Shown piece after piece: positions 1 through 31,751 of a stretch of 33,874 bases of DNA. The notes under the pieces are model-generated. The model had not been told where the DNA came from. It saw only the letters and a program-made list of their open reading frames with translations, and did not search any database. This DNA is from a virus, in the IMG/VR virus record IMGVR_UViG_3300033141_006335, positions 1 to 33,874 of that record; one strand, written 5' to 3'. A program made the translations under genes and the position numbers. Numbering within the stretch: position 1 is the stretch's first letter; each line of letters starts with the position of its first letter.

Positions 1-3000
1 ATGGCCAAAGTATATTATAAGGATGTAGAAAATTTAGGATTAATACGTGTTGATAATCCAAGACGTAGATTTTTTAATATAAATAATAGAATTGATAAAT
101 TTTATCCACATTCTATAGAATTAAGTAAGTTAAAATTTAAAAAGATTAGTAATACAGAATATAAAACAATAACTGTTGAAGAAGTTTTATTAATAGAAGG
201 CATTGTTCCTCATGGTGCCCTGATAAAAGTTTATAAAGTTGAAAATAATGAAGATATTCCTTATTCAATTATATTTCCTTATAATAGTAGAGGAAATTTT
301 AAATTTAAATATATTTTAGGGTCAGAGCCCAAAACTATAAAATTAAAATTAACTTCATTATGGAATGAAAAATCTACTATTGATAATGAATATATATATT
401 ATGAATCTGACCCTGTGTATCTTAATATTATAAAAATAGAAAGATTAAATCCTCAACCTATTTATTATCAGGTATTTGAGATTTCTTATAGAGATTTTGT
501 TTTTACTGGAACATATAAAGCAAATGATAAATATTCTGGTGTTATAACAGATAATAATATACAAAATGATATTATTTATCGGGTAAATAATAAAAATACA
601 AAACATATTTGGGTAGTAAAAGCCACTAATTTAAATTTAGTTCTTAGTGACGATAACTTGATATCGGGTGTAACGGGTTATGATTATATTACTTTTGTAA
701 CATCAGATTTTATTATTGAAAAACAAGTTATTTCAGAGTTTACTGATAAAGTAAAATCTTTTTCTTATAGTTATTCGAATGAGTTTTTATCTGGTACAGG
801 TACTGTTGTAATAAAAGATGTATATGGAAAATTAAAAAGTGAATATCAAAAAGTAGGAAATGAATTTAGATTAGTACAATCTGATTTAGCACATACAAAA
901 ATAGTATTTCAAGGGAAAATAGATAAAATAAAATTTATAAGTGATTATGGTCTGGAAACTGAAATACAATTAATTAATGAAGGTATAAAAATTGTTGAAG
1001 AAAAAATAAATTTTTCTATAAATGGCCAATATAATGGAGATGTAATAAGAGAATTAGCTGTAAAGGCAGGATTTAAAAATAAAAATATTTATGTACCAAC
1101 AGGACATTTATATGTAGGAGCACGGTCTTTTTCTAATACGGCAATGTTGGATGTTATAAAAGAAATTTTATTTGTAGAAGGCTGGTCAATAGAAGTAGGT
1201 TATGAATTAGATGTGGATGTTAATTTTCCTGAAATATTTTTAAAGATTTATGAAGATGATAATTTTCCTGCTCCTGTTTTAACTTATAATCAAAGTCAAT
1301 TTAAAGTTTTGAAATATATTGAGTCAGCAGAGAATATAGTAAATAAGATTAGGGTGAAAGGAGTTCTACCAAAATTTACAGTAAGTGAAGATAGTTTAGA
1401 AAATTTAACATTATCTAAACAAGAGGGTGAAGGAGTAAAATTATGTACTAATGAAGAGTTTAATGTTGAAGCTAATAGATTTGGTTTAGATGCTCCTATT
1501 TATTTTTTAGTATATAGTGATAAATTAGATTGGAATAATTTAAAAGGTGAATATAAAATTCAATTTAAATATAAACGATTTGGTTCGTCATCTGTATGGA
1601 CCTTAGCAGAACGTACATTGCATTTATATCCCGATGAAAATTGTGGCGTTGCTATTTTAGAATTATATTTATATCATTTAACTTCTGATTCAGTCTTATA
1701 TTACATGATTTCTTTAGAGGATAATTATGGTAATACTTTTAAAGTTGATTGGACAGAAATATCATTATCAGCTGAATTATCAGTTTTATATCAAAGAGAA
1801 GTAATATCACGAAGAGGAATATCTTATTCTAATACAAAAAAATTAGCTTCCGTTGATTTGTCTTGGAATTTTAGTAGAATGGATTCTCCAAGAGTAGGTA
1901 ATAAAAATGTGTTATGGAGCAGTTATAGGATTACAGGAAATATTGTTGAGTCGGCAGAATGGTATGTAAAAATTCCCTTAAATGGAGATACGGGAAATTG
2001 TGAGTTATCATCACTGATTATAGATTTGGACCAGGCTACATCATATTCAAAGGATGCTGTTGTTTTAAAAAATTGTTCTATACAACAGGCCCCATCAACA
2101 ATTGTATCTTATAGTGATTGGATATATTTTTATGAATTACATTCACCTTCAGTCCCTGGAAAACGTGTTGATTCAGTGATTTTCAAGGTATATCTACCAT
2201 TTCCAATATCAATTGATTCTGATATTATTGTAAGATTTAATATTTGGGGTAAAGAAGTTTATGTGGCTGAAGAAGCAGAAGACCCTACCAAAACATTAGT
2301 AGAATATTCAAATGAAGATTCGATAAAAGAATATGGGTTAAAAGATGGTGGTATAATACTTAGTCCTTATATTACTACTAAATTACAGTCGGAAATAATA
2401 GCTAAACGGTATGTGGAAGGATTAAAAGAACCCATAATACAGCTTGAGTTTACTACTCCAATGTTAATTGATGCACATAAAAATATTTTATTTAGATTAA
2501 TTGATACATTATCTGGGTTTGACTCTGAGGTCTGGATAACTGAGTTTGAAAATAATTTAACTTTTTCAGAAGGTGAATTTAGATGTTCTACTGTGTTTAC
2601 AGGGGTAAAAGCACGAAGAATTATAGTACCTGATGAAGAATTTACAGGAAAAACAAAAGAAATTATTGTACGTCCAGAATTAAGTATTCAACCTTTAGAT
2701 ATTGCAGAGTATTTAAAAAATATATTCATACAAGATTTAGGAGTTATTTTCATTGGTACTATTGCTGCCAGAGTATATAGAGGATTATATAGAATTAAAA
2801 TAGAAGGAAGTGATGTGGAAATAAAAAATGTTTTTTCCTTGATTTCTGATACCCTTAATGCAAATGATAGAGTATTGATAGGTAAATTAGATTCGACTAA
2901 TTTTGTTATTCTGCAAAAAATAGAAACTACTCCACAAGAATTAAATATAGCTGAATTTAATGGATTTAGTCCTGAACTTATTTATATTATTAAAAATATT

Positions 3001-4104
3001 ATTCCTGATGAAGATAATATTTATAATTTATCTGATTATACATCTGAAAAACCACAAACAGAATTAATGATTGTAGATAGTAATCCAAAGGAAGGTTCTA
3101 ATGATATAAATATTTATGGTTCTATAAAGGTTATGTTTAATATGAAAGCATCTGTGATGAATCCAGATAATATATATATTAGACATGCACAATCAAAAGA
3201 AAAGTTATCAAATGTTGAATTAATAGAAGATGAATTATGGGCTGTTGAATATGAAGGATTAAGATTTGTAGGTAGTAAATATAATGTACGTATTTTAAAT
3301 CCTGAAAATATTATACCAGGTACACAAATTGAGCTTGTATTTTTAGAAAAATCTTTATATGGTATTTTTTTAGTTTATAAGACGTTGGCAAAAATAGAAT
3401 GTTTAGAAGAACTTTTAAATAAAGAATTAAAATTAACATTTAATGTTCCTGAATATGATGCTATGTCTGATTTTGGATATAAACAGGAATTTTGGGTAGA
3501 TGAAAATAATCCAACTACTTTAAGTGTGGATGGTAATACTTATGATTTTGAGGTATTAGAAGTTTCTGATGATGGTGTAATACTAAAGGTTATTGATAAT
3601 CAAACAGGAGAAGAAATGATACAAACATATGATACAACAATTAATAATACTGGTCAAATTGGAAATATGAAATTTACTATAGACCAGATTGATAATGGAA
3701 GTGTGTTAATAACAGGAGAAGCAGTTAGTGAGCGAGATGTTACTACTACCTCTTATTTGGCAGTAGGAGATTTTTATATCTATTATAATTATAAGATAGA
3801 AGTTATAGAAGTTGCATCGACCTACACAAAATTTAATATATATGATGCTACCACAGGTGAATTATTGCATACTACAAGTAATATTAGCGAAGGCGGGTAT
3901 GAAGTATTTCAAGATTTAAAGATTGTGGTAATGGATATTGAGAGTAATACAGTAAAGATACAATTAAGCTTATTTAGTGACATAAATGACCCAAAAGTTA
4001 GTGTTATTAGTGATGACTTGCTATTATTAGAATTTGGTGATAATATTATATTAGATACGGAGTCATCTGAAAATATAGATAATTATGAAATAAGTGAGAG
4101 CTAA
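1..4104 (+). CDS. Large phage tail/baseplate protein with hub-like and Ig-like domains
   Basis: This is probably a structural protein of the tail tip or baseplate, judged from its length (1367 aa), its beta-rich composition and the lysis genes that follow. Residues about 235-480 resemble the tail-hub fold of the phage late-control D/gp27 type: a beta-rich stretch, then a segment with TAMLDVIKEIL and GWSIEVGYEL. Residues about 1020-1105 look like a bacterial Ig-like (Big_5) domain (VDSNPKEGSNDINIYGSIKV, then FNMKASVMNPDNI). Residues 1174-1240 and 1253-1322 appear to be two copies of one beta module, each with a TGE turn. No membrane segment is visible. The ATG is the first base of the window, so no ribosome site can be seen and the true start could lie further upstream. 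The tail role is well supported; the exact component is inferred. Confidence 0.72.
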   Translation: MAKVYYKDVENLGLIRVDNPRRRFFNINNRIDKFYPHSIELSKLKFKKISNTEYKTITVEEVLLIEGIVPHGALIKVYKVENNEDIPYSIIFPYNSRGNFKFKYILGSEPKTIKLKLTSLWNEKSTIDNEYIYYESDPVYLNIIKIERLNPQPIYYQVFEISYRDFVFTGTYKANDKYSGVITDNNIQNDIIYRVNNKNTKHIWVVKATNLNLVLSDDNLISGVTGYDYITFVTSDFIIEKQVISEFTDKVKSFSYSYSNEFLSGTGTVVIKDVYGKLKSEYQKVGNEFRLVQSDLAHTKIVFQGKIDKIKFISDYGLETEIQLINEGIKIVEEKINFSINGQYNGDVIRELAVKAGFKNKNIYVPTGHLYVGARSFSNTAMLDVIKEILFVEGWSIEVGYELDVDVNFPEIFLKIYEDDNFPAPVLTYNQSQFKVLKYIESAENIVNKIRVKGVLPKFTVSEDSLENLTLSKQEGEGVKLCTNEEFNVEANRFGLDAPIYFLVYSDKLDWNNLKGEYKIQFKYKRFGSSSVWTLAERTLHLYPDENCGVAILELYLYHLTSDSVLYYMISLEDNYGNTFKVDWTEISLSAELSVLYQREVISRRGISYSNTKKLASVDLSWNFSRMDSPRVGNKNVLWSSYRITGNIVESAEWYVKIPLNGDTGNCELSSLIIDLDQATSYSKDAVVLKNCSIQQAPSTIVSYSDWIYFYELHSPSVPGKRVDSVIFKVYLPFPISIDSDIIVRFNIWGKEVYVAEEAEDPTKTLVEYSNEDSIKEYGLKDGGIILSPYITTKLQSEIIAKRYVEGLKEPIIQLEFTTPMLIDAHKNILFRLIDTLSGFDSEVWITEFENNLTFSEGEFRCSTVFTGVKARRIIVPDEEFTGKTKEIIVRPELSIQPLDIAEYLKNIFIQDLGVIFIGTIAARVYRGLYRIKIEGSDVEIKNVFSLISDTLNANDRVLIGKLDSTNFVILQKIETTPQELNIAEFNGFSPELIYIIKNIIPDEDNIYNLSDYTSEKPQTELMIVDSNPKEGSNDINIYGSIKVMFNMKASVMNPDNIYIRHAQSKEKLSNVELIEDELWAVEYEGLRFVGSKYNVRILNPENIIPGTQIELVFLEKSLYGIFLVYKTLAKIECLEELLNKELKLTFNVPEYDAMSDFGYKQEFWVDENNPTTLSVDGNTYDFEVLEVSDDGVILKVIDNQTGEEMIQTYDTTINNTGQIGNMKFTIDQIDNGSVLITGEAVSERDVTTTSYLAVGDFYIYYNYKIEVIEVASTYTKFNIYDATTGELLHTTSNISEGGYEVFQDLKIVVMDIESNTVKIQLSLFSDINDPKVSVISDDLLLLEFGDNIILDTESSENIDNYEISES

Positions 4105-12819: not shown

Positions 12820-15315
12820 ATGGAAAATTTACATGATAACTGCAAATATTGTAAGTTATATACGCATTCTACTGCACATTTTATCACTGGTAAGTGTTAT
12901 GCCCCTTCTTTACAGGATGTAAAATTGATGATTTTAAGTGAGAGTCCTATAAATGGCAGGGTTATGTCAGGTCCTTCAGAAAGACTTTTAAAAAGTATTT
13001 TAAAAAAATGTGGTATATTAAAATATGCTTATGTAACAAATATTCTTAAATGTCCAACACTGTATAATAAAAGACCATCTATAAAACAAGTTAATTTTTG
13101 TCGTCCTTTATTAGATAAAGAAATTCAAAAGATTAATCCAAAAGTAATTGTATGTATGGGTAATATAGTTGTTAAATCTATTTTAGGTACTTCAGGTGTA
13201 GCACAATTAAGAGGTCAAGCATTTCCTATTTTTTCAACTGGTTTTTGTGTTCCTACTTATCATTTATCAGCAGCACAGCGAAATGAAAATTTTATTGAAA
13301 AAATTGTTGAAGATATGTTAATTGCTAAGCAAATTATTCTTCAAAAACAAAATAAGTTATCTAAAACTAAAGTTCATATTGCTGGTTCTTTTTTGGATTT
13401 AAAGAAATTTAAAAAACTTTTGTTAAAACAGTCAAAATTAAGTTTCGATATTGAAACAAATACAAGTAATTGTTGGAATGAATCTGGTAAAATCTTGTGT
13501 TGTGGATTCTCCTTTAAAAAAGGATTAGCATATGTATTACCTTCTGAAGGACCTGATTATACTGAAAAGGAATTTATACGAGTATTAAAAGAAATTCTGG
13601 AATCTAATGTACAGAAAATTGCACATAATGCTAAATTTGATTGTCTATTTCCTCGTGTCAGATATGGTATATATGTTAAAAATCTATATTTTGATACAAT
13701 GTTAGCACATTATCTTTTGAATGAGATACGAGGAACTCATGGGTTAAAAAAATTGTGTAGAGTTTATACATCAATGGAAGCTTATGAGAGTAAAATGGTT
13801 CTTGCTCAACAGATATATGGCAAAAGTGATGCTTTTTCAAAAATAAATCCTATTGATTTATATGAATATAATGGAGGTGATTGTGATTGTACTTATAGAT
13901 TATATAAAGAATTTAGTAAACAATTGAATAAAAATAAGCGTAGAAAGAAATTACATGATTTTTTGATTATTCCATTAATACATTTATTAATGGATATAGA
14001 ACACAAGGGTATTTATGTAAGTAAATTAAAGTTACAGAGATTAAAAAAATTATTTAAAAAGAAAATAGAAGATGCAAAAAATTTTTTATATTCTATTTCT
14101 GAAGTTAAAGAAGCTCAAAAACAATTAAATTATGAAGTATTAAGGAAAGCATTTATAACATATCAAAAGAATTTAGAAGATTATAAGAAAGGTATCAGAA
14201 AAAATGTTCCAAAATTTCCAAAAGTAAAAGAAGTTGTTTTTAATTTAAAATCTAATAAACATTTAAGTTTATTATTATATAATGTAATAGGATTAGAAGT
14301 AATTAAAAAAACAAAGAAAACTGGTTCTCCTTCTGTTGATAGTGAAGTTTTAGAAAAATTTGAAAACTCACATATTTTTTGTAAGAAATTAATAGAATAT
14401 AGAAAATTAGAAAAGTTATATTCTACATATATTGAAAATTTAGATAATTATATAGCTAAAGATGGTAGGGTACATCCTGATTATTATATTCATGGCACAG
14501 TTACAGGACGTTTATCGGCACGTAATCCTAATGTATTGAATATTCCACGAGTAGATAGTGGTGGCAAAGAAATAAGAGATTTATATTGTGCTCCAAAAGG
14601 ATATATATTGATAGAAGCTGATTATGCTCAGATAGAGATGCGAGTTATGGCATGGTATGCGAATGATAAAACATTAATAAAATCAATAAATTCAGGTATT
14701 GATATTCATAGAGCGGTAGCTGCTGAAGTATTTAATTGTGAACCTGAAGAGGTAACAAAAAAGCAGAGACAAAGTATAAAAAGTCTGAATTTTGGATTAA
14801 TATATGGTAGAGGAGCAAAATCAATATCGGAAGAATTGGGATGGTCTATGAAAAAAACACAAAAATTTATACAAAAATATTTTGAGAGGTTTTCTGGCAT
14901 TGAATATTTTATCAATCGTCAAAAAAGATTTGCAAAAAAGTATGGATATGTGGAAAGTTTTTTTGGTAGAGTCAGACATTTGCCTAACATTAATAGTCCC
15001 GATATGTATTTAAGAGCAGAAGCAGAAAGACAGGCAGTAAATGCTCCTATTCAGAGTACAGCGTCAGATTTAACTTTATTTTCTGCAATAAAATTGAATA
15101 ATTATTTTAAGAAAAATAATATTGATGCTCATATTATTAATATTATTTATGATTCAATATTGACAGAATGTAGAGAAGATTTAGTAGATGAAGTTATAAA
15201 AATAAAAAAGAAAATTATGGAAACTTGGAATTTTTCTTGGGTAAAAACTAAGATTGATACGGATATTAAAGTTGGTAAATTTTGGGGAAGTTTAGAAAAG
15301 GTAAAGGAGGTTTAA
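12820..15315 (+). CDS. Family 4 uracil-DNA glycosylase fused to family A DNA polymerase
   Basis: An 831-aa replicative polymerase with an extra N-terminal repair domain. Residues 1-170 match family 4 (iron-sulfur) uracil-DNA glycosylases: C8 and C11, C78 and C94 at the family spacing (YVTNILKC and NFCRPLL), and PTYHLSAAQRN with the conserved His. The usual GEAPG motif is SESPING, so the active site is altered. Residues 205-370 are a 3'-5' exonuclease (D210 and E212 in DIET; NAKFD; YNGGD). Residues about 530-831 are the PolA core: motif A DYAQIEMR at 601, motif B RQSIKSLNFGLIYG at 650-663, and motif C IYDSI at 776-780, where the usual HDE is YDS. There is no 5' nuclease domain; a separate gene at 17470 supplies it. 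SPO1-type phages are known to carry a related fusion. Confidence 0.92.
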   Translation: MENLHDNCKYCKLYTHSTAHFITGKCYAPSLQDVKLMILSESPINGRVMSGPSERLLKSILKKCGILKYAYVTNILKCPTLYNKRPSIKQVNFCRPLLDKEIQKINPKVIVCMGNIVVKSILGTSGVAQLRGQAFPIFSTGFCVPTYHLSAAQRNENFIEKIVEDMLIAKQIILQKQNKLSKTKVHIAGSFLDLKKFKKLLLKQSKLSFDIETNTSNCWNESGKILCCGFSFKKGLAYVLPSEGPDYTEKEFIRVLKEILESNVQKIAHNAKFDCLFPRVRYGIYVKNLYFDTMLAHYLLNEIRGTHGLKKLCRVYTSMEAYESKMVLAQQIYGKSDAFSKINPIDLYEYNGGDCDCTYRLYKEFSKQLNKNKRRKKLHDFLIIPLIHLLMDIEHKGIYVSKLKLQRLKKLFKKKIEDAKNFLYSISEVKEAQKQLNYEVLRKAFITYQKNLEDYKKGIRKNVPKFPKVKEVVFNLKSNKHLSLLLYNVIGLEVIKKTKKTGSPSVDSEVLEKFENSHIFCKKLIEYRKLEKLYSTYIENLDNYIAKDGRVHPDYYIHGTVTGRLSARNPNVLNIPRVDSGGKEIRDLYCAPKGYILIEADYAQIEMRVMAWYANDKTLIKSINSGIDIHRAVAAEVFNCEPEEVTKKQRQSIKSLNFGLIYGRGAKSISEELGWSMKKTQKFIQKYFERFSGIEYFINRQKRFAKKYGYVESFFGRVRHLPNINSPDMYLRAEAERQAVNAPIQSTASDLTLFSAIKLNNYFKKNNIDAHIINIIYDSILTECREDLVDEVIKIKKKIMETWNFSWVKTKIDTDIKVGKFWGSLEKVKEV

Positions 15316-15821: not shown

Positions 15822-15841
15822 AAATGAAAGGAGGAAAAATA

Positions 15842-16513
15842 ATGAGTGTAGGAAAAGTTAATTTAGATGAAATTAAAAAAATATATGAGAAAGTAAAAAA
15901 TGAAATGAACGGTGGAAATCAATTTTTTAAATTTGAAGAAGGCTCATCAAAAGTTGCATTAATGCCCCCACGAAAAGGTTCATCGACATTTTTTGTTAGA
16001 GGTAATATACATTTCGTACGTTTGGATGAAGAAATTGTTACATTGCGATGTAGAAGGGATATTGGTAAAATATGTCCTTTATGTGATACTTTAGAGTTAT
16101 TAATGAGAAAGAATAAAATAAAAAAAGAAAAATACCAGGCATTGAAAGCAAGACATAGAATTTATATAGCTATAGTTGATAGAAAAAATCCTGGTGCTGG
16201 TGTTCAGATAGCACCAATTGGTAGAACAATATTTGAAGCAATATTAAGCATATTTGCGAATCCTGATTGGGGTGATATAACTGACCCTAATAATGCAAGA
16301 GACTTAGTTATTAGGCGTGAAGGTACGAGTAGATATAATACTAAATATTTTGTTGAGCCAAGTCCTAAAAAGAGAACATTAAAGAAAAAATGGTTAAAAA
16401 ATATTCCAGACTTAGAAAAAGCATTACCTAAAATAAAAAGTAGAAAATTTGTAAAAAAGATAACAAAAAAATTGTTAGGGGTATGCGCAAATGGGAAGAA
16501 GAAAGAAAAATAG
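15842..16513 (+). CDS. Single-stranded DNA-binding protein, gp32-like
   Basis: A 223-aa protein resembling T4 gp32. The zinc site is H57, C70, C78 and C81 (GNIHFVR, LRC, ICPLC), the same His-Cys-Cys-Cys order as gp32. Around it are the OB-fold features FKFEEGSSKVALMPPRKGSS at residues 30-49 and later RIYIAIVDRKNPGAGVQIAP. Unlike gp32, the C-terminus is strongly basic (KKITKKLLGVCANGKKKEK) and lacks an acidic tail, which is odd because that tail usually recruits partner proteins. ATG 15842 follows AAAGGAGG; an in-frame ATG at 15824 precedes that site. The end overlaps the recombinase gene by 23 bases. Confidence 0.8.
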   Translation: MSVGKVNLDEIKKIYEKVKNEMNGGNQFFKFEEGSSKVALMPPRKGSSTFFVRGNIHFVRLDEEIVTLRCRRDIGKICPLCDTLELLMRKNKIKKEKYQALKARHRIYIAIVDRKNPGAGVQIAPIGRTIFEAILSIFANPDWGDITDPNNARDLVIRREGTSRYNTKYFVEPSPKKRTLKKKWLKNIPDLEKALPKIKSRKFVKKITKKLLGVCANGKKKEK

Positions 16514-17492
16514 TTTTATTGGTGTTGCTAAGTTAGGGTTTAGACCCGCTATACAATGTGTTGATTATAGTATTCCTGAATTTATTAGTACAGGATTACT
16601 ACCCTTAGACAGAGAATTGGGTGGTGGGATACCATTAAGTAGGCAGGTTGAGATATATGGTCCTGAATCAAGTGCTAAAAGTAGTTTGGCTTTAAGAATA
16701 GCAGCATCAGCACAAAAACAAGATTGTGAAGTATATTTATTAGAAAATGAAGGAACATTTGATATAGAACGAGCTAAAATTTTAGGCGTAGATATTAATT
16801 CATTATATGTTTATCGTCCTGAAACATTAGAAGAAGGGTTTGAAGTAATAAAGTCGTTGATAAAATTATTTATAAAAGATAAAGATAGAAAAGGTTTATT
16901 AATTTGGGATACTTTAAATGCAACTCAGGCTATGGAAGAAGAAGATGTAAAATTTGGAGATAAACGGCCAAGTCCTCAAGCACGGGCTATATCTCAAGCA
17001 TTACGAAGAATTACAAATAAACTTGCAAAAACCAAATTAGGTATAATTTATATTAATCAAACACGAAAAAAAGTAGGGCTTTTATTTGGAGACCCTGAAA
17101 CTACTCCTGGTGGAAGAGCTTTAAAATTTTATGCTTCATGGAGATTAGCAATTAGAAAAAAGAAGATAATAAAAAATGATAATTCTATTCCTGTAGGTAT
17201 TTGGTGTGCATTAGAAACTAAAAAGAATAAAATAACTGTACCTTTTAGAAAATTAGAAATACCTTTAATGTTTGGTAAGCGGGGTTTTGATGAAGCTTTA
17301 TTAAATGTAACATATTTAGTACAACATAAAGTTTTGAAGAAAAATTCTACTGGTTGGATAGAATGGGGAAATAAAAAAGTTAAACCTAAAAAATTAATAA
17401 AAGCTGCAAGGCAAGATAATAAAATTATGAAGAAGTTAGAAAAGCTTATTAAGGGGATGAAACCTGTTTGTGAAGAAGATGCTTATAATTGA
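16491..17492 (+). CDS. RecA/UvsX-type recombinase
   Basis: A 333-aa strand-exchange protein. It has the RecA entry ISTGLLPLDRELGGGIPLSR, a P-loop GPESSAKS at 57-64, Walker B LLIWD at 136-140, the conserved Gln after IIYIN (NQTRKK), and the loop 2 region (FGDPETTPGGRALKFYAS). The P-loop has Ala where almost all RecA proteins have Gly (GPESSGKT); T4 UvsX also departs there (GPSKSFKS). It overlaps the SSB gene by 23 bases and the 5' nuclease gene by 23 bases, so it is made as part of one recombination operon. Confidence 0.9.
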   Translation: MGRRKKNSFIGVAKLGFRPAIQCVDYSIPEFISTGLLPLDRELGGGIPLSRQVEIYGPESSAKSSLALRIAASAQKQDCEVYLLENEGTFDIERAKILGVDINSLYVYRPETLEEGFEVIKSLIKLFIKDKDRKGLLIWDTLNATQAMEEEDVKFGDKRPSPQARAISQALRRITNKLAKTKLGIIYINQTRKKVGLLFGDPETTPGGRALKFYASWRLAIRKKKIIKNDNSIPVGIWCALETKKNKITVPFRKLEIPLMFGKRGFDEALLNVTYLVQHKVLKKNSTGWIEWGNKKVKPKKLIKAARQDNKIMKKLEKLIKGMKPVCEEDAYN

Positions 17493-18423
17493 TGGTAATA
17501 ATTTAGCTATTCGTGCTTATTTTGGATATAGTTATCAGATTAATACTATAGAAGTTGGTATGTTATATGGTTTTTTAGATATGTTGCGAAAGTATATTAA
17601 AAAATTTAAGCCTGATTATGTGTTTGCTGTTTTTGATGGCGGCCATAGCAGAAGAAGGAAGAAGATATATAAACAATATAAAGTAAAAGAACGAACAATG
17701 GAAGATAAAATAAGATTAGCCATAATAATTGAATATATTGATATAATAAAAAGTATATTGCCTTATTTTAAAATTAAACCTATTTTTTTAAAAGGTGTAG
17801 AAGGTGATGATTTAATTTATACATTATGTAAAATATATAAAAAAGTAAAAAGGGTAGTAGTATCTTCTGATATTGATTTTTTACAATTACTTAAATCATT
17901 TAATTTATCAATATATTTACCTACTAAAGAAATATATGTGAATAAAAAAAATTTTGTTGAAATTATGGGTGTATATCCTATTGAATTTTTATTTATGAGA
18001 GCTGTTGTTGGCGATAGAAGTGATAGAATTGATGGAATTTCTGGTATAGGTGAAAAAACAATAAAAAAGATAATTGAAAGAAATAGGGATAAGTTTGCTG
18101 ATTCAGGAATATATAAATCAATAGAAAATTTAAAAGTTTTTTTGAATAATTTAGAATTAATAAATAAAAGAGAGCAATTATTATTAAATCAGGAAGAAAA
18201 GATTTATAGGAATATTCAATTAATGGATTTATCTAAGGAATATAAGGAAAATTTAAAAGATATTGTAAAAAAAGAGATTAAGAAAAATAAAAAATTTTTA
18301 AAACCATTAGTAAAAAAAGAAATAAAAGAAAAGAAGATTATGCAATTTTTTTATAAATATTGTTTATTTGCTAAAATTAATGATTTTTCAGAATTTATTA
18401 GACCTTTTAAAAGATTAAAATGA
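17470..18423 (+). CDS. 5'-3' exonuclease / flap nuclease (FEN, T4 RNase H type)
   Basis: A 317-aa nuclease of the PolI 5'-nuclease family, which removes RNA primers and flaps. Metal-binding residues are visible: D8 (LIIDGNN), D56 (VFAVFDGG), E111-G-D113-D114, D134 and D136 (VSSDIDF), and GDRSDRI at 181-187, then the helix-hairpin-helix ISGIGEKTIKK. It supplies the activity absent from the polymerase at 12820. The start is GTG 17470 (ATG 17479 possible), inside the end of the recombinase gene. The stop overlaps the next start by ATGA. The Lys-rich C-terminus (about 250-317) is not recognised. Confidence 0.88.
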   Translation: MKKMLIIDGNNLAIRAYFGYSYQINTIEVGMLYGFLDMLRKYIKKFKPDYVFAVFDGGHSRRRKKIYKQYKVKERTMEDKIRLAIIIEYIDIIKSILPYFKIKPIFLKGVEGDDLIYTLCKIYKKVKRVVVSSDIDFLQLLKSFNLSIYLPTKEIYVNKKNFVEIMGVYPIEFLFMRAVVGDRSDRIDGISGIGEKTIKKIIERNRDKFADSGIYKSIENLKVFLNNLELINKREQLLLNQEEKIYRNIQLMDLSKEYKENLKDIVKKEIKKNKKFLKPLVKKEIKEKKIMQFFYKYCLFAKINDFSEFIRPFKRLK

Positions 18424-19400
18424 AACAGAAGGAGTTATTACCAGCTAAATACAGATTACGATTATTATTTAATAAAGAAAAGATTAATACTTTAAAAGAA
18501 AATGAAAAGTTAATTAATAGATATAAAAATAAGATTGAATATTATAATAATATAATGATTGATATTACTAAAATTAAACCATATCTATATTTTTGTGAAA
18601 CTAAAGAAGATAAACAGTTTTGGACTGCTTTTGTTCATTTAACAACATCTTTACCTTTTAAAAGCGCAGTAGGTCGGCAAATAAAAATATTTGTAAAAGA
18701 TAAAAATACAGATTATATTTTAGGAATGGTTCAGCTTACAAGCGATTTGGCACAATTACGTGTCAGAGATACATATATTGGATGGTCTTATAAAGATAAA
18801 TGGGAACATATTAATAATATTTTAAATATACAAATTTGTGTACCTACAAGAAGATATTCTTATTTATTAATAGGCAAATTATTGGTATATTGTTTATTTT
18901 CTATTGATATTGTACAATATTATTTAAATAAATATAATGATTATTTAGTTGGTCTTACTACTACATCATTATATGGAAAAAGTTCAATGTATAATAGGAT
19001 ACCATTTTTAAAATATTTAGGTTTATCTGATGGAATGAGTGCAGTGTATATATCAAATGAAGAATGGAAGAAGATATTAAAAGAATATTATAAGTATTTT
19101 CCTAAAACAAATACAAAAAGATTAGCTCCTGTTAAATATCAAATAATAGATAAACTTGCTTCTTATTATAAACGACATTTTAATAAAGAATTTCCTTATG
19201 AATACCAAAAAATTGAGTATAGGAGAGGAGTTTATTTTGGTTATTTATGTAAAAATGGAAAAGATTTTTTGAATGGTAAATGTAATGTTCCTTTTCATAA
19301 TGTATTTACTGTATATGATTCTTTTATAAATTGGAAAAACAGATGGTTTAATCCACGATATGAAAAGTATAAAAAGGAGGATTTAAATATTTATGGATAA
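18420..19400 (+). CDS. DruA-like protein (DUF4338 family)
   Basis: A 326-aa protein that I recognise as a homologue of DruA (DUF4338), a component of the Druantia bacterial anti-phage systems. Family landmarks are in order: SAVGRQIKIF (about 80-89), YILGMVQLTSDLAQLRVRD then TYIGWSYKDK (about 98-127), NNILNIQICVPTRRYSYLLI then GKLLVYCLFS (about 131-160), and the hallmark GLTTTSLYGKSSMYNRIPFL then KYLGLSDGM (about 178-206). Here it is encoded by the phage, overlaps the 5' nuclease start-to-stop (ATGA) and the SbcD-like gene by 8 bases, and no other Druantia component is next to it. A role in DNA processing or replication fits the neighbours; a counter-defence role is possible. The biochemical activity is not evident from sequence. 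Confidence 0.75.
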   Translation: MKQKELLPAKYRLRLLFNKEKINTLKENEKLINRYKNKIEYYNNIMIDITKIKPYLYFCETKEDKQFWTAFVHLTTSLPFKSAVGRQIKIFVKDKNTDYILGMVQLTSDLAQLRVRDTYIGWSYKDKWEHINNILNIQICVPTRRYSYLLIGKLLVYCLFSIDIVQYYLNKYNDYLVGLTTTSLYGKSSMYNRIPFLKYLGLSDGMSAVYISNEEWKKILKEYYKYFPKTNTKRLAPVKYQIIDKLASYYKRHFNKEFPYEYQKIEYRRGVYFGYLCKNGKDFLNGKCNVPFHNVFTVYDSFINWKNRWFNPRYEKYKKEDLNIYG

Positions 19401-20436
19401 TAATAAAGTTTTATTGTTTACTGATTTACATTTTAAAAGTTACAATGTCTTGGGAAGTGTATTAAGTAAAGGCAAATATAAAGATATAAGATTCAAGAAT
19501 ATTTTAAATACGTTAGACAAGATTTTTTCTATTGCTAAAAAGAAAAAAATAAAAAGATTAATATTTTTGGGTGACTTGTTTGAAGACAGGCCACGTATTC
19601 ATATGAAAGAATATGGGGTTGTATTTAATAAATTTTATGATATGAAAGATAGATTTGAATTTTGGTTTGTTGTAGGTAATCACGATTGGATAGATGAGCA
19701 AGAGCAAATTCATTCATTAATTCCTTTTAAGGAAATAGGCAAGGTTTTTGATAAGCCAACAGAAATAGAAGATATTCTTATTTTACCGTATCTATCGGAT
19801 ATAAAAAAGATAAAAAAAGCTATTAGTAAAACAACAAAAAAATATTGTTTGGGTCATTTAGGTATCCAGGAAGCTATTATGGATTCGGGGTATATGATAC
19901 CCAAAGAATCAAAATTAACTGTTAAAGATTTTAAGAAATTTGAAACTGTGTTTTTTGGTCATTATCATAAACATCAACAAGTAAATAATATTATTTATGT
20001 TGGTTCGTCTTTACAGCAGGATTTTGGAGAACGAAATGAAGATAAAGGAATAATAATCTGGGATATTAAAGAAAATAAAAATAAATTTATTGTATTGGAT
20101 AGCTGGAAGTTCTACGTAGTATCATTAAAGGAATTTAAGGAATTAATAAAACAAAATAAAAAAGATGGATTTTTTAAAGTAGAAGTAGAAGAGCACGAGA
20201 TTGAAGATTTTAAAGAGTTATTAAAAAAGTATGAAGTATATGCACGTCCTGAATATAAAATTAAAGATATAAAAAATGAAGATATATCAGAAGATGTTAC
20301 AATAAATTTTAAAGAATTATTAAATAAGTATTTAAAAATGAATGTAAAGAATAAAAGTAAAATTAAATTATATAATAAAATATTACAAAAAATAATGGGT
20401 GATATAAATGATTCAATTCCAAAAAATTTGTCTTAA
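19393..20436 (+). CDS. sbcD: SbcD/Mre11-type nuclease subunit (T4 gp47 family)
   Basis: This 347-aa protein is the nuclease half of the SbcCD/gp46-gp47 complex that resects DNA ends. The calcineurin-like metallophosphoesterase motifs are all present: D11 and H13 (FTDLHF), D61 (GDLFEDR), GNHD at 95-98, H155 (LGHLG) and GHYH at 189-192. A capping and partner-binding region follows (230-347). It has a strong ribosome site (AAAAGGAGG, 19372-19380), overlaps the DruA-like gene upstream by 8 bases and the SbcC gene by 29 bases, so nuclease and ATPase are co-translated. Confidence 0.92.
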   Translation: MDNNKVLLFTDLHFKSYNVLGSVLSKGKYKDIRFKNILNTLDKIFSIAKKKKIKRLIFLGDLFEDRPRIHMKEYGVVFNKFYDMKDRFEFWFVVGNHDWIDEQEQIHSLIPFKEIGKVFDKPTEIEDILILPYLSDIKKIKKAISKTTKKYCLGHLGIQEAIMDSGYMIPKESKLTVKDFKKFETVFFGHYHKHQQVNNIIYVGSSLQQDFGERNEDKGIIIWDIKENKNKFIVLDSWKFYVVSLKEFKELIKQNKKDGFFKVEVEEHEIEDFKELLKKYEVYARPEYKIKDIKNEDISEDVTINFKELLNKYLKMNVKNKSKIKLYNKILQKIMGDINDSIPKNLS

Positions 20437-22219
20437 AAATTTTTTATCACACGAAGACACTGAATTGGTATTTCCAAAAAAGGGTATTTTACCTGTTTTT
20501 GGGAATAATGGAGAAGGTAAATCTGCTTTATTTGAAGCTATTGTATGGTGTTTGTTCGGTAAATCTATACGTGGTATTAGTGCAGATGAAGTTATAATGT
20601 GGGGTAAATCTTGGTGTTCTGTAGAACTTAAATTTAAAAAATATGATAATGTTTATAAAATAATTAGATATAGAAAACATAGTAAATATAAAAATCAAGT
20701 ACTTATTTTTGAGAATAAAGAAGATAAGCCAAAATATTTTTGTAGTGTAAATGAAGCACAGAAATTTATTGAATCTGTAATGGGTGTGAATTATATAATA
20801 TTTTTAAATTCTGTGTATTTTGGTCAAAATTGGAATAAGTTTTTTGTATCTGTAGATTTAAGTGAAAGAAGAAAATTATTAGAAAGTTTTGTTGGAGCTG
20901 ATATATTTAGAAAAATATATAAAAAAGCTTCAGATTTCTTAAAAGAAACCAATATGAAGTTAGATAATGTACGATATAAAAAAGATACATTAATAACATC
21001 TATTGATTCTTTAAAATCTCAAAAACAAACTATGCAGGGTTTATTAAAGAATATATCAAATGATATTAAAAATAAGCAAAAGAAATTAAGAAATGAATTT
21101 AAGAAATTAAATGATTCTTATAAAAGTATAAAAGAAAATATTCAAAAATTAAAAGAAAAAAAGAAAAAATTAAGAACAAAAATGTTTAAATTACAAAAAA
21201 ATAGATATTTTTTATCAAAAGAAGAATTAGAAGAACTAAGAAATAAAAAAACTAAGTGCTCTGTTATTATTAGACAGGAAGAAAAAGCTATAAAATATAG
21301 AAAAAATATTGATTTATCAGATGAATGTACAATGTGTTTAAGACCTTTGTCTAAAAAAGATTTAAAAATATATGCACAAAAGAGTAAAAAAGAAATAGAG
21401 AAGTCAGAGAATATAATAAAAAAAGAACGCCAGAAAGTAAAAAAATTAGAGCAGTTAGAGACAGAAGCATTGGATTTATGGGAAACAATAGATGTAATTA
21501 AAGAAAATATAATAAGTATAGAATCATATATTGATAAGAAAAAGCTTAATTTAGAACATATAAAAGATAAGATAATTAATATAAAAGAAGAGTTTAATAA
21601 TATTACAAAAAATAGTAAGAAAAAAGAATTGGTTAAAGAAATAAATAGTATAAATAAGAAAATAAGAAATAGACAAAGAGAATTAAATAAAATAAAAGAA
21701 CAAGAAAATGACCTTAAAGAAACTGAAGAAGCTTTAATATTTTGGAAGAATGCATTTGGAAGTAAAGGCATAATTAATATGGTCTTGTCTAATTTAAGAT
21801 TATTTTTAAATAGGAAATTACAAGAGTTTGCTTTAAAATTATTAGAAAATAAATTCATTTTGGAATTTACATCAGATAATAATAATTTGTCTTTAAATGT
21901 GATTAAAGATGGTAAGGTAATTAATTTTAAGAGTTTATCAGGCGGAGAACGGCAAAGAGTAAATTTATGTATTTTTCTTGCAATAAGTGAATGGAAGCTT
22001 ACTAATAATCCTTGTTCTTTCTCAATTTTTGATGAGCCCTTTGTTTTTGTCGATTCAGAAGGTATGATTTCATTTAAAGAAATTCTTAAAGAATTAGCTA
22101 AAAATAAATGTATATTTTTAGTTAGTCATAGAAATAATCAATTAGAATTTGATAGCGCAAAAAAAATTATTATACAGATGGAAAATAAAATAAGTAAAAT
22201 TGATTACATAGAAAGATAA
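20408..22219 (+). CDS. sbcC: SbcC/Rad50-type ATPase subunit (T4 gp46 family)
   Basis: A 603-aa SMC-like ATPase, partner of the nuclease upstream. The head has Walker A GNNGEGKS at 32-39, the ABC signature LSGGERQR at 510-517 and Walker B FSIFDEPFVFVD near 538-549, then VSHR. Two long coiled-coil arms run from about 190 to 470, and a zinc hook CTMC sits at the turn near 306-309. It is compact compared with bacterial SbcC (about 1000 aa) but matches phage gp46 in size. With SbcD it would generate the 3' single strands used by the RecA-like protein in recombination-dependent replication. Confidence 0.93.
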   Translation: MIQFQKICLKNFLSHEDTELVFPKKGILPVFGNNGEGKSALFEAIVWCLFGKSIRGISADEVIMWGKSWCSVELKFKKYDNVYKIIRYRKHSKYKNQVLIFENKEDKPKYFCSVNEAQKFIESVMGVNYIIFLNSVYFGQNWNKFFVSVDLSERRKLLESFVGADIFRKIYKKASDFLKETNMKLDNVRYKKDTLITSIDSLKSQKQTMQGLLKNISNDIKNKQKKLRNEFKKLNDSYKSIKENIQKLKEKKKKLRTKMFKLQKNRYFLSKEELEELRNKKTKCSVIIRQEEKAIKYRKNIDLSDECTMCLRPLSKKDLKIYAQKSKKEIEKSENIIKKERQKVKKLEQLETEALDLWETIDVIKENIISIESYIDKKKLNLEHIKDKIINIKEEFNNITKNSKKKELVKEINSINKKIRNRQRELNKIKEQENDLKETEEALIFWKNAFGSKGIINMVLSNLRLFLNRKLQEFALKLLENKFILEFTSDNNNLSLNVIKDGKVINFKSLSGGERQRVNLCIFLAISEWKLTNNPCSFSIFDEPFVFVDSEGMISFKEILKELAKNKCIFLVSHRNNQLEFDSAKKIIIQMENKISKIDYIER

Positions 22220-22222
22220 ACT

Positions 22223-22825
22223 ATGTATTTTAATAATGAAGTTGCAAAAAAATTAATTTTTGAATATAATAAGTTGAATGACAAAAATAAAAAACACGAA
22301 TTAATATTATATATTATGAATACAATAGTTATGTCTATATTACGTAAAAATTATAATAAATGGGGCTCAGTCTTTCATGATTTATATCAGGATAGTTATT
22401 TTAAAATTAATATTTTAATTGATAAAATTGATTTGAGACATAAAAATTTATATAACTATTTATATACATGTATTCATAATTATTTAACTTTGAGATTTAA
22501 TAGGTATTATAGAAAAAATAATTTATGTACTTTTCCTTTAGATGATTCTATTATATATAATAATATGTCTAATGATAATTATGTAAGATTAGAATTAAAG
22601 AATTTCATTTATTCTGATAAAATAATTAGTTTGGGATTTAAATATATAATAAATTATAAGAGTATTTTAGATTATATTATTAGAAAATGTTTTTTATCAT
22701 TATTTTATTTACCTGATGTTAAAGATTTAGTAACGAAATTTAATATATCAAGAGAGCTTGCACTATTGATTATAGATAGAATAAAAATACGGATAAAACT
22801 ATGGCAATTTCAAAAAAACAAATAA
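22223..22825 (+). CDS. Sigma-70-family-like factor (second copy)
   Basis: A 200-aa protein with a sigma region 2-like segment at residues 28-98 (the DLYQDSYFKINILIDKID helix, then NLYNYLYTCIHNYLTLRFNR). The C-terminal part (about 160-197) could be a helix-turn-helix (VKDLVTKFNISRELALLIID). It is similar in plan to T4 gp55 and to the protein at 11297, but the two are clearly diverged. It lies directly upstream of a Mor-like regulator and the terminase genes, so a late-gene sigma is the best guess. The ribosome site is weak (GAAAG). Confidence 0.62.
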   Translation: MYFNNEVAKKLIFEYNKLNDKNKKHELILYIMNTIVMSILRKNYNKWGSVFHDLYQDSYFKINILIDKIDLRHKNLYNYLYTCIHNYLTLRFNRYYRKNNLCTFPLDDSIIYNNMSNDNYVRLELKNFIYSDKIISLGFKYIINYKSILDYIIRKCFLSLFYLPDVKDLVTKFNISRELALLIIDRIKIRIKLWQFQKNK

Positions 22826-30443: not shown

Positions 30444-30618
30444 TTGTGAATTATCTCAAGAAGAAAAAGAAATAATTAAGTATATTTTTATTAAACGTGT
30501 TAAAAATGCAAAAAATCATATAACTCCTCGTGAAGTTTTGTTATTAAATTTAAGTTGGAGAGATGATTTATACATACAAAATATAGACGATGTTCAATTT
30601 GTTGTTCAAAAGTTATGA
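30427..30618 (+). CDS. 63-aa unknown protein
   Basis: Not recognised. This protein starts MKLMFNCELSQEEKEIIKYI and is acidic toward the end (RDDLYIQNIDDVQFVVQKL). It overlaps the exonuclease gene by 17 bases and the methyltransferase gene by ATGA, which supports it as real and co-translated with both. Confidence 0.5.
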   Translation: MKLMFNCELSQEEKEIIKYIFIKRVKNAKNHITPREVLLLNLSWRDDLYIQNIDDVQFVVQKL

Positions 30619-31751
30619 AATTAAATTATATCTATAATGACCATGCCTTAAATGTTTTAAAATCTTTTCCCGATGAAAGTATTGATTGTATTATAACTTC
30701 TCCTCCTTATTATAAATTAAGAGATTATAAGGTTAAAAATCAAATTGGACAGGAAAAATCATTAAAACAATATATTAATAATCTTTTAGAAATTACAGCA
30801 GAACTTAAAAGAATTTTAAAACCAACTGGAATAATGTTCTGGAATCATGATAGTAATATAGAAAATTATTGTAATACAGCACAAAATTATAAATTAATAA
30901 TTGAAATGATAGATAAACAAAAGTGGATATGGCTTGGTAAAGGTCCATTAATATGGTATAAACCTAACAGTCTTCCAAGCTCAGCTACTAAAAATTTAAC
31001 TCATAAATACGAACCTATATTTATTTTAGTTAAAGATAAAAATTATTGGTTTAATTTAGATATTATTAGGCAGCCACATAGTGAAGAATCTATAAAAAGA
31101 GCTAATAGAGGAGTTAGTAATAATCATAAATATATTAATAAAGAAAAATATGGTGGAGGTGGTGGTTTAAATAGACCACGAAAAAATACTAAATATGATA
31201 TAATCCATAGACCTGGTGCTTCCTATGATGATTCTTTACATAAAAAACCTTTGCATGAGTTAGGTAAAAATCCAGGAAATATTTGGGAAATACCAACAAA
31301 AGGATTTTCTGCTAAAAAATTTGGATTTAATAATACGGACCATTATGCAATATTTCCCGTTGGTCTAATTGAATTTCTAATAAAAATAGGGTGTCCTAAA
31401 TGGGTATGTAAAACATGTGGAAAGCCTTTAAAAAGAATAATAGATAAAGACAATATTAAAAAATTTATTTTACAAAATTATGTAAATAATAATACTTTAT
31501 ATATTTATAATATAATAGAAATTTTAATAAAATTTAATACTATTGGTTGGAAAAAATCTTGTTCCTGTAAATCAGGTATAGTATCAGGAATTGTGTTAGA
31601 CCCCTTTTTTGGTTCGGGTACTGTAGGGGTTACTGCAAAGAAATTAAATAGAAATTGGATAGGTATTGAAATTAATTCCGAATATTGTAAGATAGCTGAA
31701 AAACGAATTAAGATAATGACATTTCAAAAATATATTTATGATATTAATTAG
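30615..31751 (+). CDS. DNA methyltransferase (beta-class, N4-C or N6-A)
   Basis: A 378-aa amino-methyltransferase. The catalytic motif TSPPY at 28-32 precedes the SAM-binding motif LDPFFGSGTVG near 328-338 and WIGIEIN, the order of the beta class. Those enzymes methylate N6 of adenine or N4 of cytosine. A Cys set at about 260-320 (CPKWVCKTCGKPL, later CSCKSG) suggests an inserted zinc ribbon, often seen in phage versions. No restriction nuclease is adjacent, so it is an orphan that probably protects phage DNA or regulates it. Overlaps the preceding gene by ATGA. Confidence 0.88.
   Translation: MKLNYIYNDHALNVLKSFPDESIDCIITSPPYYKLRDYKVKNQIGQEKSLKQYINNLLEITAELKRILKPTGIMFWNHDSNIENYCNTAQNYKLIIEMIDKQKWIWLGKGPLIWYKPNSLPSSATKNLTHKYEPIFILVKDKNYWFNLDIIRQPHSEESIKRANRGVSNNHKYINKEKYGGGGGLNRPRKNTKYDIIHRPGASYDDSLHKKPLHELGKNPGNIWEIPTKGFSAKKFGFNNTDHYAIFPVGLIEFLIKIGCPKWVCKTCGKPLKRIIDKDNIKKFILQNYVNNNTLYIYNIIEILIKFNTIGWKKSCSCKSGIVSGIVLDPFFGSGTVGVTAKKLNRNWIGIEINSEYCKIAEKRIKIMTFQKYIYDIN

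What the first reader, a model, noticed from the sequence alone, without database searches (positions are those of the whole stretch)
18420..19400. Lone DruA (DUF4338) homologue inside a phage recombination operon
DruA is known as a component of Druantia, a bacterial anti-phage system. Here a protein with the family's hallmark segments (GLTTTSLYGKSSMYNRIPF, YLGLSDG) is encoded by the phage and overlaps a FEN-type nuclease and SbcD. No other Druantia component is adjacent. This suggests that DUF4338 began as, or also works as, a phage DNA-processing factor, or that the phage uses a decoy DruA against the defence. The family match is recognised by eye; the role is inference.
Basis: partly seen in the sequence, partly recalled or inferred. 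Interest (0 to 1): 0.85.

Follow-up and report, generated by a model that had tools for sequence, protein, structure and literature searches.

The report
DruA-like gene in phage replication operon
This phage really does carry a relative of the bacterial anti-phage protein DruA, and it belongs to a large, little-noticed family that many T4-like phages keep among their own DNA replication and repair genes, so it looks like a working phage part rather than a decoy, although what it does chemically is not known.

Summary
Window 18420-19400 encodes an intact 326-aa protein that matches Pfam DruA (PF14236) at E=1.3e-19, far above the cut-off. It overlaps a T4-type 5'-3' exonuclease and gp47/SbcD, and no other Druantia gene was found beside it. 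It is not a lone oddity. Scans of IMG/VR and GenBank phages found hundreds of phage homologues (PHROG 19197, function unknown). They recur inside T4-like replication/recombination clusters in at least six arrangements: gp45-D-gp44, gp44-D-gp62, gp47-gp46-(PDF)-D, gp43-D-UvsX, UvsX-gp41-D, and here exo-D-gp47-gp46. Some phages carry two paralogues. 159 of 174 phage relatives end in -GR, a tail that the window protein lacks. The predicted fold is GNAT-acyltransferase-like, but matches are weak. Of 20 positions shared by phage and Druantia-type DruA, the window keeps 18. A role coupled to phage DNA replication/recombination is best supported. A decoy role has no support. The chemistry (acyl transfer, or DNA binding only) is inference. 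Phold (2026) already noted DruA-like proteins in six Synechococcus phages; I found no report of the synteny, paralogues or tail in the library searched. The direction of descent between phage and Druantia DruA is unresolved.

The parts
18420..19400 (+). DruA/DUF4338 homologue (326 aa), GNAT-like predicted core at residues ~50-205
   Evidence: PF14236 E=1.3e-19; PADLOC DruA 5.4e-26; phrog_19197 7.8e-16; AF2 model, core blocks mostly 82-94 pLDDT
17470..18423 (+). T4-type 5'-3' exonuclease (FEN-like), overlaps the DruA start by 4 bases
   Evidence: PF02739 3.1e-30, phrog_107
19393..20436 (+). gp47/SbcD-like nuclease subunit, overlaps the DruA end by 8 bases
   Evidence: phrog_100 7.4e-53; AGGAGG upstream of its start, inside the DruA 3' end
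20408..22219 (+). gp46/SbcC-like ATPase subunit
   Evidence: phrog_77 1.8e-81
16491..17492 (+). UvsX/RecA-like recombinase
   Evidence: PF00154 9.9e-58, phrog_97
15824..16513 (+). gp32-like single-strand DNA-binding protein
   Evidence: PF08804, phrog_1192
12820..15315 (+). Family A DNA polymerase with an N-terminal UDG-like domain (same replication cluster)
   Evidence: PF00476 2.7e-107, PF03167 3.1e-17
22223..22825 (+). Possible gp55-like late sigma factor (weak match)
   Evidence: PF04542 sigma-70 region 2, E=0.0017, below cut-off

Best explanation
The gene encodes a true DruA-family protein that serves the phage itself. It is a divergent member of a large phage family kept among the replication/recombination genes of T4-like phages (shown). 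It most likely acts on phage DNA replication or recombination intermediates together with the clamp/clamp loader and the gp46/47-UvsX machinery (inferred from recurrent placement). Its core has a GNAT acyltransferase-like fold (predicted, weak structural matches), so the most likely chemistry is transfer of an acyl group to DNA or to a replisome protein; this step is inference. Druantia would then use a cousin of the same protein against phage DNA intermediates (inference).
For: Co-linear homology to plasmid DruAs that sit with a DEAD/DEAH helicase (hhalign 99.8%, E=4.5e-29 over 263 columns). Recurrent placement: 76 of the first 80 IMG/VR loci have a core replication/recombination gene within 3 kb, all 144 such neighbours on the same strand; of 79 further loci, gp45 is the nearest recognised gene upstream in 42 and gp44 downstream in 45; gp44-D-gp62 in eight cyanophages, some with small ORFs between; gp43-D-UvsX in HTVC008M. 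Paralogues in one genome, tandem or apart. Window keeps 18 of 20 positions shared by phage and bacterial/archaeal DruA, including R116, GKL152-154, TTS181-183, Y191, R269, R313. C-terminal -GR in 159 and -IR in 10 of 174 phage relatives, unlike neighbouring families. GNAT structures dominate Foldseek hits for two models, and PMC10853773 independently calls DUF4338 GNAT-like. QxxGxN, close to the GNAT motif (Q/R)xxGx(G/A), in 174 of 177 phage-set members.
Against: Hsp20, peptide deformylase, cobS and 2OG oxygenase genes share the same region, so location alone does not prove a replisome role. Only 11 of 23 clusters at 60% identity have a recognised replication gene within 1.2 kb; some lie elsewhere (near PhoH in L013/L171, terminase in L110). 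PDB matches are weak (best E 2e-4 with TM 0.24-0.35; for the better model E 8e-3). The window protein lacks QxxGxN and the -GR tail. No acidic or His residue is among the 20 shared positions. No function was measured for any member in the papers I read.
Confidence: 0.5

Rival explanations
1. A non-catalytic GNAT-fold protein that binds branched or single-stranded DNA and recruits partners (gp46/47 or clamp loader in phages; DruE in Druantia).
For: The 20 positions shared by phage and bacterial/archaeal DruA hold Gly, Arg, Lys, Ser, Thr, Tyr, Pro and Leu but no acid or His; the window lacks QxxGxN; the conserved C-terminal tail of relatives suggests a partner contact.
Against: QxxGxN in 174 of 177 phage-set members suggests cofactor binding in most.
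Confidence: 0.25
2. A Mom-like DNA base-modifying acyltransferase that protects phage DNA from restriction.
For: GNAT-like fold; one cyanophage copy is annotated 'methylcarbamoylase mom'; placement in replication clusters.
Against: No Pfam Mom match in 12 members; no significant profile match of phage or Druantia-type DruA to Mom proteins; Mom's invariant H, Y, E and D residues have no evident shared counterpart.
Confidence: 0.12
3. A protein acetyltransferase for host takeover that sits in the core region like hsp20 or peptide deformylase, without acting on DNA.
For: GNAT-like fold; genes without a replication role share the region.
Against: It occupies at least six sites, mostly beside replication/recombination genes, and its bacterial relative belongs to a helicase-based defence system.
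Confidence: 0.08
4. A decoy or inhibitor that blocks bacterial Druantia.
For: It resembles DruA and lacks other Druantia parts.
Against: Hundreds of homologues at core loci, deep divergence, paralogues and retained signature residues. Whether the hosts carry Druantia was not tested.
Confidence: 0.05

Closest known systems
Phage DruA-like family (PHROG 19197; DruA-like proteins of Synechococcus phages in Phold, PMC12774648; DUF4338 protein of pelagiphage Mosig)
   Same: Sequence family, replication-cluster location, core signature residues
   Different: The window protein is 21-33% identical to them, lacks the N-terminal extension of many members, QxxGxN and the -GR tail, and sits between exonuclease and gp47
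Druantia DruA (PF14236; plasmid copies L101-L103)
   Same: Co-linear over most of the protein; 18 of 20 shared positions kept
   Different: No DruE helicase or other Druantia gene found beside it; phage replication context
GNAT acyltransferases (e.g. KKT23, CBU0801)
   Same: Predicted core topology; top Foldseek hits
   Different: Low TM-scores and about 10% identity; the window lacks motif A
Mom (PF25680)
   Same: GNAT superfamily and phage DNA context (literature)
   Different: No sequence or profile match

Membership tests
DruA/DUF4338 (PF14236) | Profile score above the curated cut-off | tested here: met
   71 bits vs 27
DruA/DUF4338 (PF14236) | Co-linear with DruA from Druantia-type loci | tested here: met
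   hhalign of the family alignment led by the window, 263 columns, E=4.5e-29
DruA/DUF4338 (PF14236) | Positions shared by phage and bacterial/archaeal DruA | tested here: met
   18 of 20 kept; I151 stands for G and R145 for P
DruA/DUF4338 (PF14236) | Same three-dimensional fold as bacterial DruA | not tested
   No solved DruA among PDB matches; no library of predicted cellular proteins here
Druantia defence system | Adjacent DruE helicase and other Dru genes | tested here: not met
   Ten neighbouring proteins, no Druantia model
Druantia defence system | Anti-phage activity | not testable with these tools
   Needs a plating assay
GNAT acyltransferase | GNAT fold | tested here: inconclusive
   GNATs dominate Foldseek hits, but E is 2e-4 to 8e-3 and TM is low
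GNAT acyltransferase | Motif A (Q/R)xxGx(G/A) after beta-4 | tested here: not met
   Window has TRRYSY there; 174 of 177 phage-set members have QxxGxN
GNAT acyltransferase | Acyl-CoA-dependent transfer | not testable with these tools
   Needs enzymology
Mom | PF25680 or profile match to Mom | tested here: not met
Phage DruA-like family (phrog_19197) | Profile match | tested here: met
   E=7.8e-16; all 12 members of A1 match
Phage DruA-like family (phrog_19197) | C-terminal -GR/-IR tail (described here) | tested here: not met
   Window ends -IYG; 169 of 174 relatives end in -GR or -IR

The most novel reading that the evidence does not exclude
DruA is an ancient viral replisome-associated acyltransferase, shared by T4-like phages and giant viruses, whose unknown chemistry on replicating DNA was captured by bacteria to build Druantia.
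Probability: 0.15. Interest if true: 0.85.

Novelty: new variant of a known kind. Interest (0 to 1): 0.5.

Why it matters
I found no account of what DruA does in Druantia type I in the papers I could search. A phage family with the same signature residues, kept beside the clamp, clamp loader and gp46/47, gives a testable lead: study DruA biochemistry with phage replication proteins. It also warns that a DruA hit in a phage genome should not be read as defence or counter-defence by default.

Tried and rejected
Single-protein scans of IMG/VR with the window DruA, gp47 and UvsX found no close relative; alignments were needed. A mixed phage/Druantia alignment was too divergent to scan with. Mom homology was tested and not supported. 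A PDB sequence search found nothing relevant. The genome-contig scan gave only two contigs of a Thermoplasmata MAG, whose neighbouring ORFs look viral, so probably misbinned phage. I considered a p-value for the synteny and dropped it: clusters are not independent, flanks are uneven, and the 80 loci kept per scan are the best-scoring, not a random sample.

Full report
Observation. The window is a 33,874-base virus record. ORF 18420-19400 is intact, and its protein matches DruA far above the curated cut-off. It overlaps the exonuclease upstream by 4 bases and gp47 downstream by 8 bases. The surrounding genes form a T4-type replication/recombination cluster, and the ten neighbouring proteins scanned showed no Druantia partner.

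Relatives. tblastn against GenBank phages found 23 records, all cyanophages or pelagiphages; other members used as queries raised this to 31. A second scan, built on the window and its nearest relatives, gave 219; the two sets may overlap. All 12 members of the first alignment match PF14236 and phrog_19197, a PHROG of unknown function. Foldseek also matched proteins of the giant viruses Faunusvirus, Yasminevirus and Dasosvirus (E 1e-16 to 3e-8).

Context. In eight of the cyanophages inspected the gene lies between gp44 and gp62, in some with small ORFs between. In pelagiphages a copy lies downstream of gp46, in S-B68 it lies upstream of gp47, and a second copy in HTVC008M lies between gp43 and UvsX. 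In the first IMG/VR set it mostly follows gp46 and peptide deformylase, or UvsX-gp41. In the second set it often lies between gp45 and gp44. L174 has gp32-UvsX-exo-gp45-D-gp44, the arrangement most like the window. Exceptions exist: the L013 and L171 types lie near PhoH, and L110 lies near the terminase. Genes with no replication role also sit in this region, so context is suggestive, not proof.

Paralogues and tail. Several phages hold two copies, tandem or separate. Of 174 phage relatives with a complete 3' end, 159 end in -GR and 10 in -IR; no neighbouring protein family shows this. The window protein ends in -IYG and lacks the N-terminal extension seen in many members.

Relation to Druantia. 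Plasmid DruAs with a DEAD/DEAH helicase nearby align with the phage profile over 263 columns. Twenty positions passed a filter for conservation in both phage and bacterial/archaeal proteins, and the window keeps 18. In a 33-row tree the bacterial and archaeal DruAs form one group (100/99); the window is a long branch of unsure place, and there is no root. So neither 'phage first' nor 'bacteria first' is shown.

Fold and mechanism. The window model has mean pLDDT 73, with most of residues 50-205 above 80. A relative, the second L013 copy, gives 88.7. For both, GNAT acyltransferases dominate the PDB matches, with weak scores. This agrees with the GNAT assignment of DUF4338 in PMC10853773. A QxxGxN motif is found in 174 of 177 members of the phage set and, in the L013 model, lies between beta-4 and alpha-3; the window lacks it. 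Profile comparison with Mom proteins was negative. I therefore favour a role coupled to phage replication/recombination with possible acyltransferase chemistry, and mark the chemistry as inference.

Known work. Phold reported six Synechococcus phages with DruA-like proteins by structure (PMC12774648). I found no paper describing the conserved synteny, paralogues or tail, within a library that lacks most subscription journals.

Noticed in passing
window 12820-15315: Family A DNA polymerase carries an N-terminal uracil-DNA-glycosylase-like domain (PF03167, E=3.1e-17).
   Followed up: no
window 30615-31751: DNA methyltransferase-like ORF: 370 residues cover only about 228 profile positions of phrog_67, suggesting an insertion.
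   Followed up: no
L105, L106: Contigs in a Thermoplasmata MAG carry tandem DruA-like genes and a DNA polymerase-like ORF, and L105 a helicase-like ORF; probably misbinned phage.
   Followed up: partly
L110 2569-3732: A DruA-like gene close to RNase E-like and terminase genes, with no replication gene recognised on that contig piece.
   Followed up: partly
BFVD hits A0A3G4ZXG3, A0A5K0UAJ3, A0A3G4ZRA1: Giant-virus proteins match the window model at 21-28% identity.
   Followed up: no
L002-L188, DruA-like proteins: Near-invariant C-terminal Arg (-VGR/-IIR), unlike any neighbouring family.
   Followed up: partly
window 1-4104: 1,367-aa ORF beginning at the first base of the record, with only a weak tail-protein match.
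   Followed up: no
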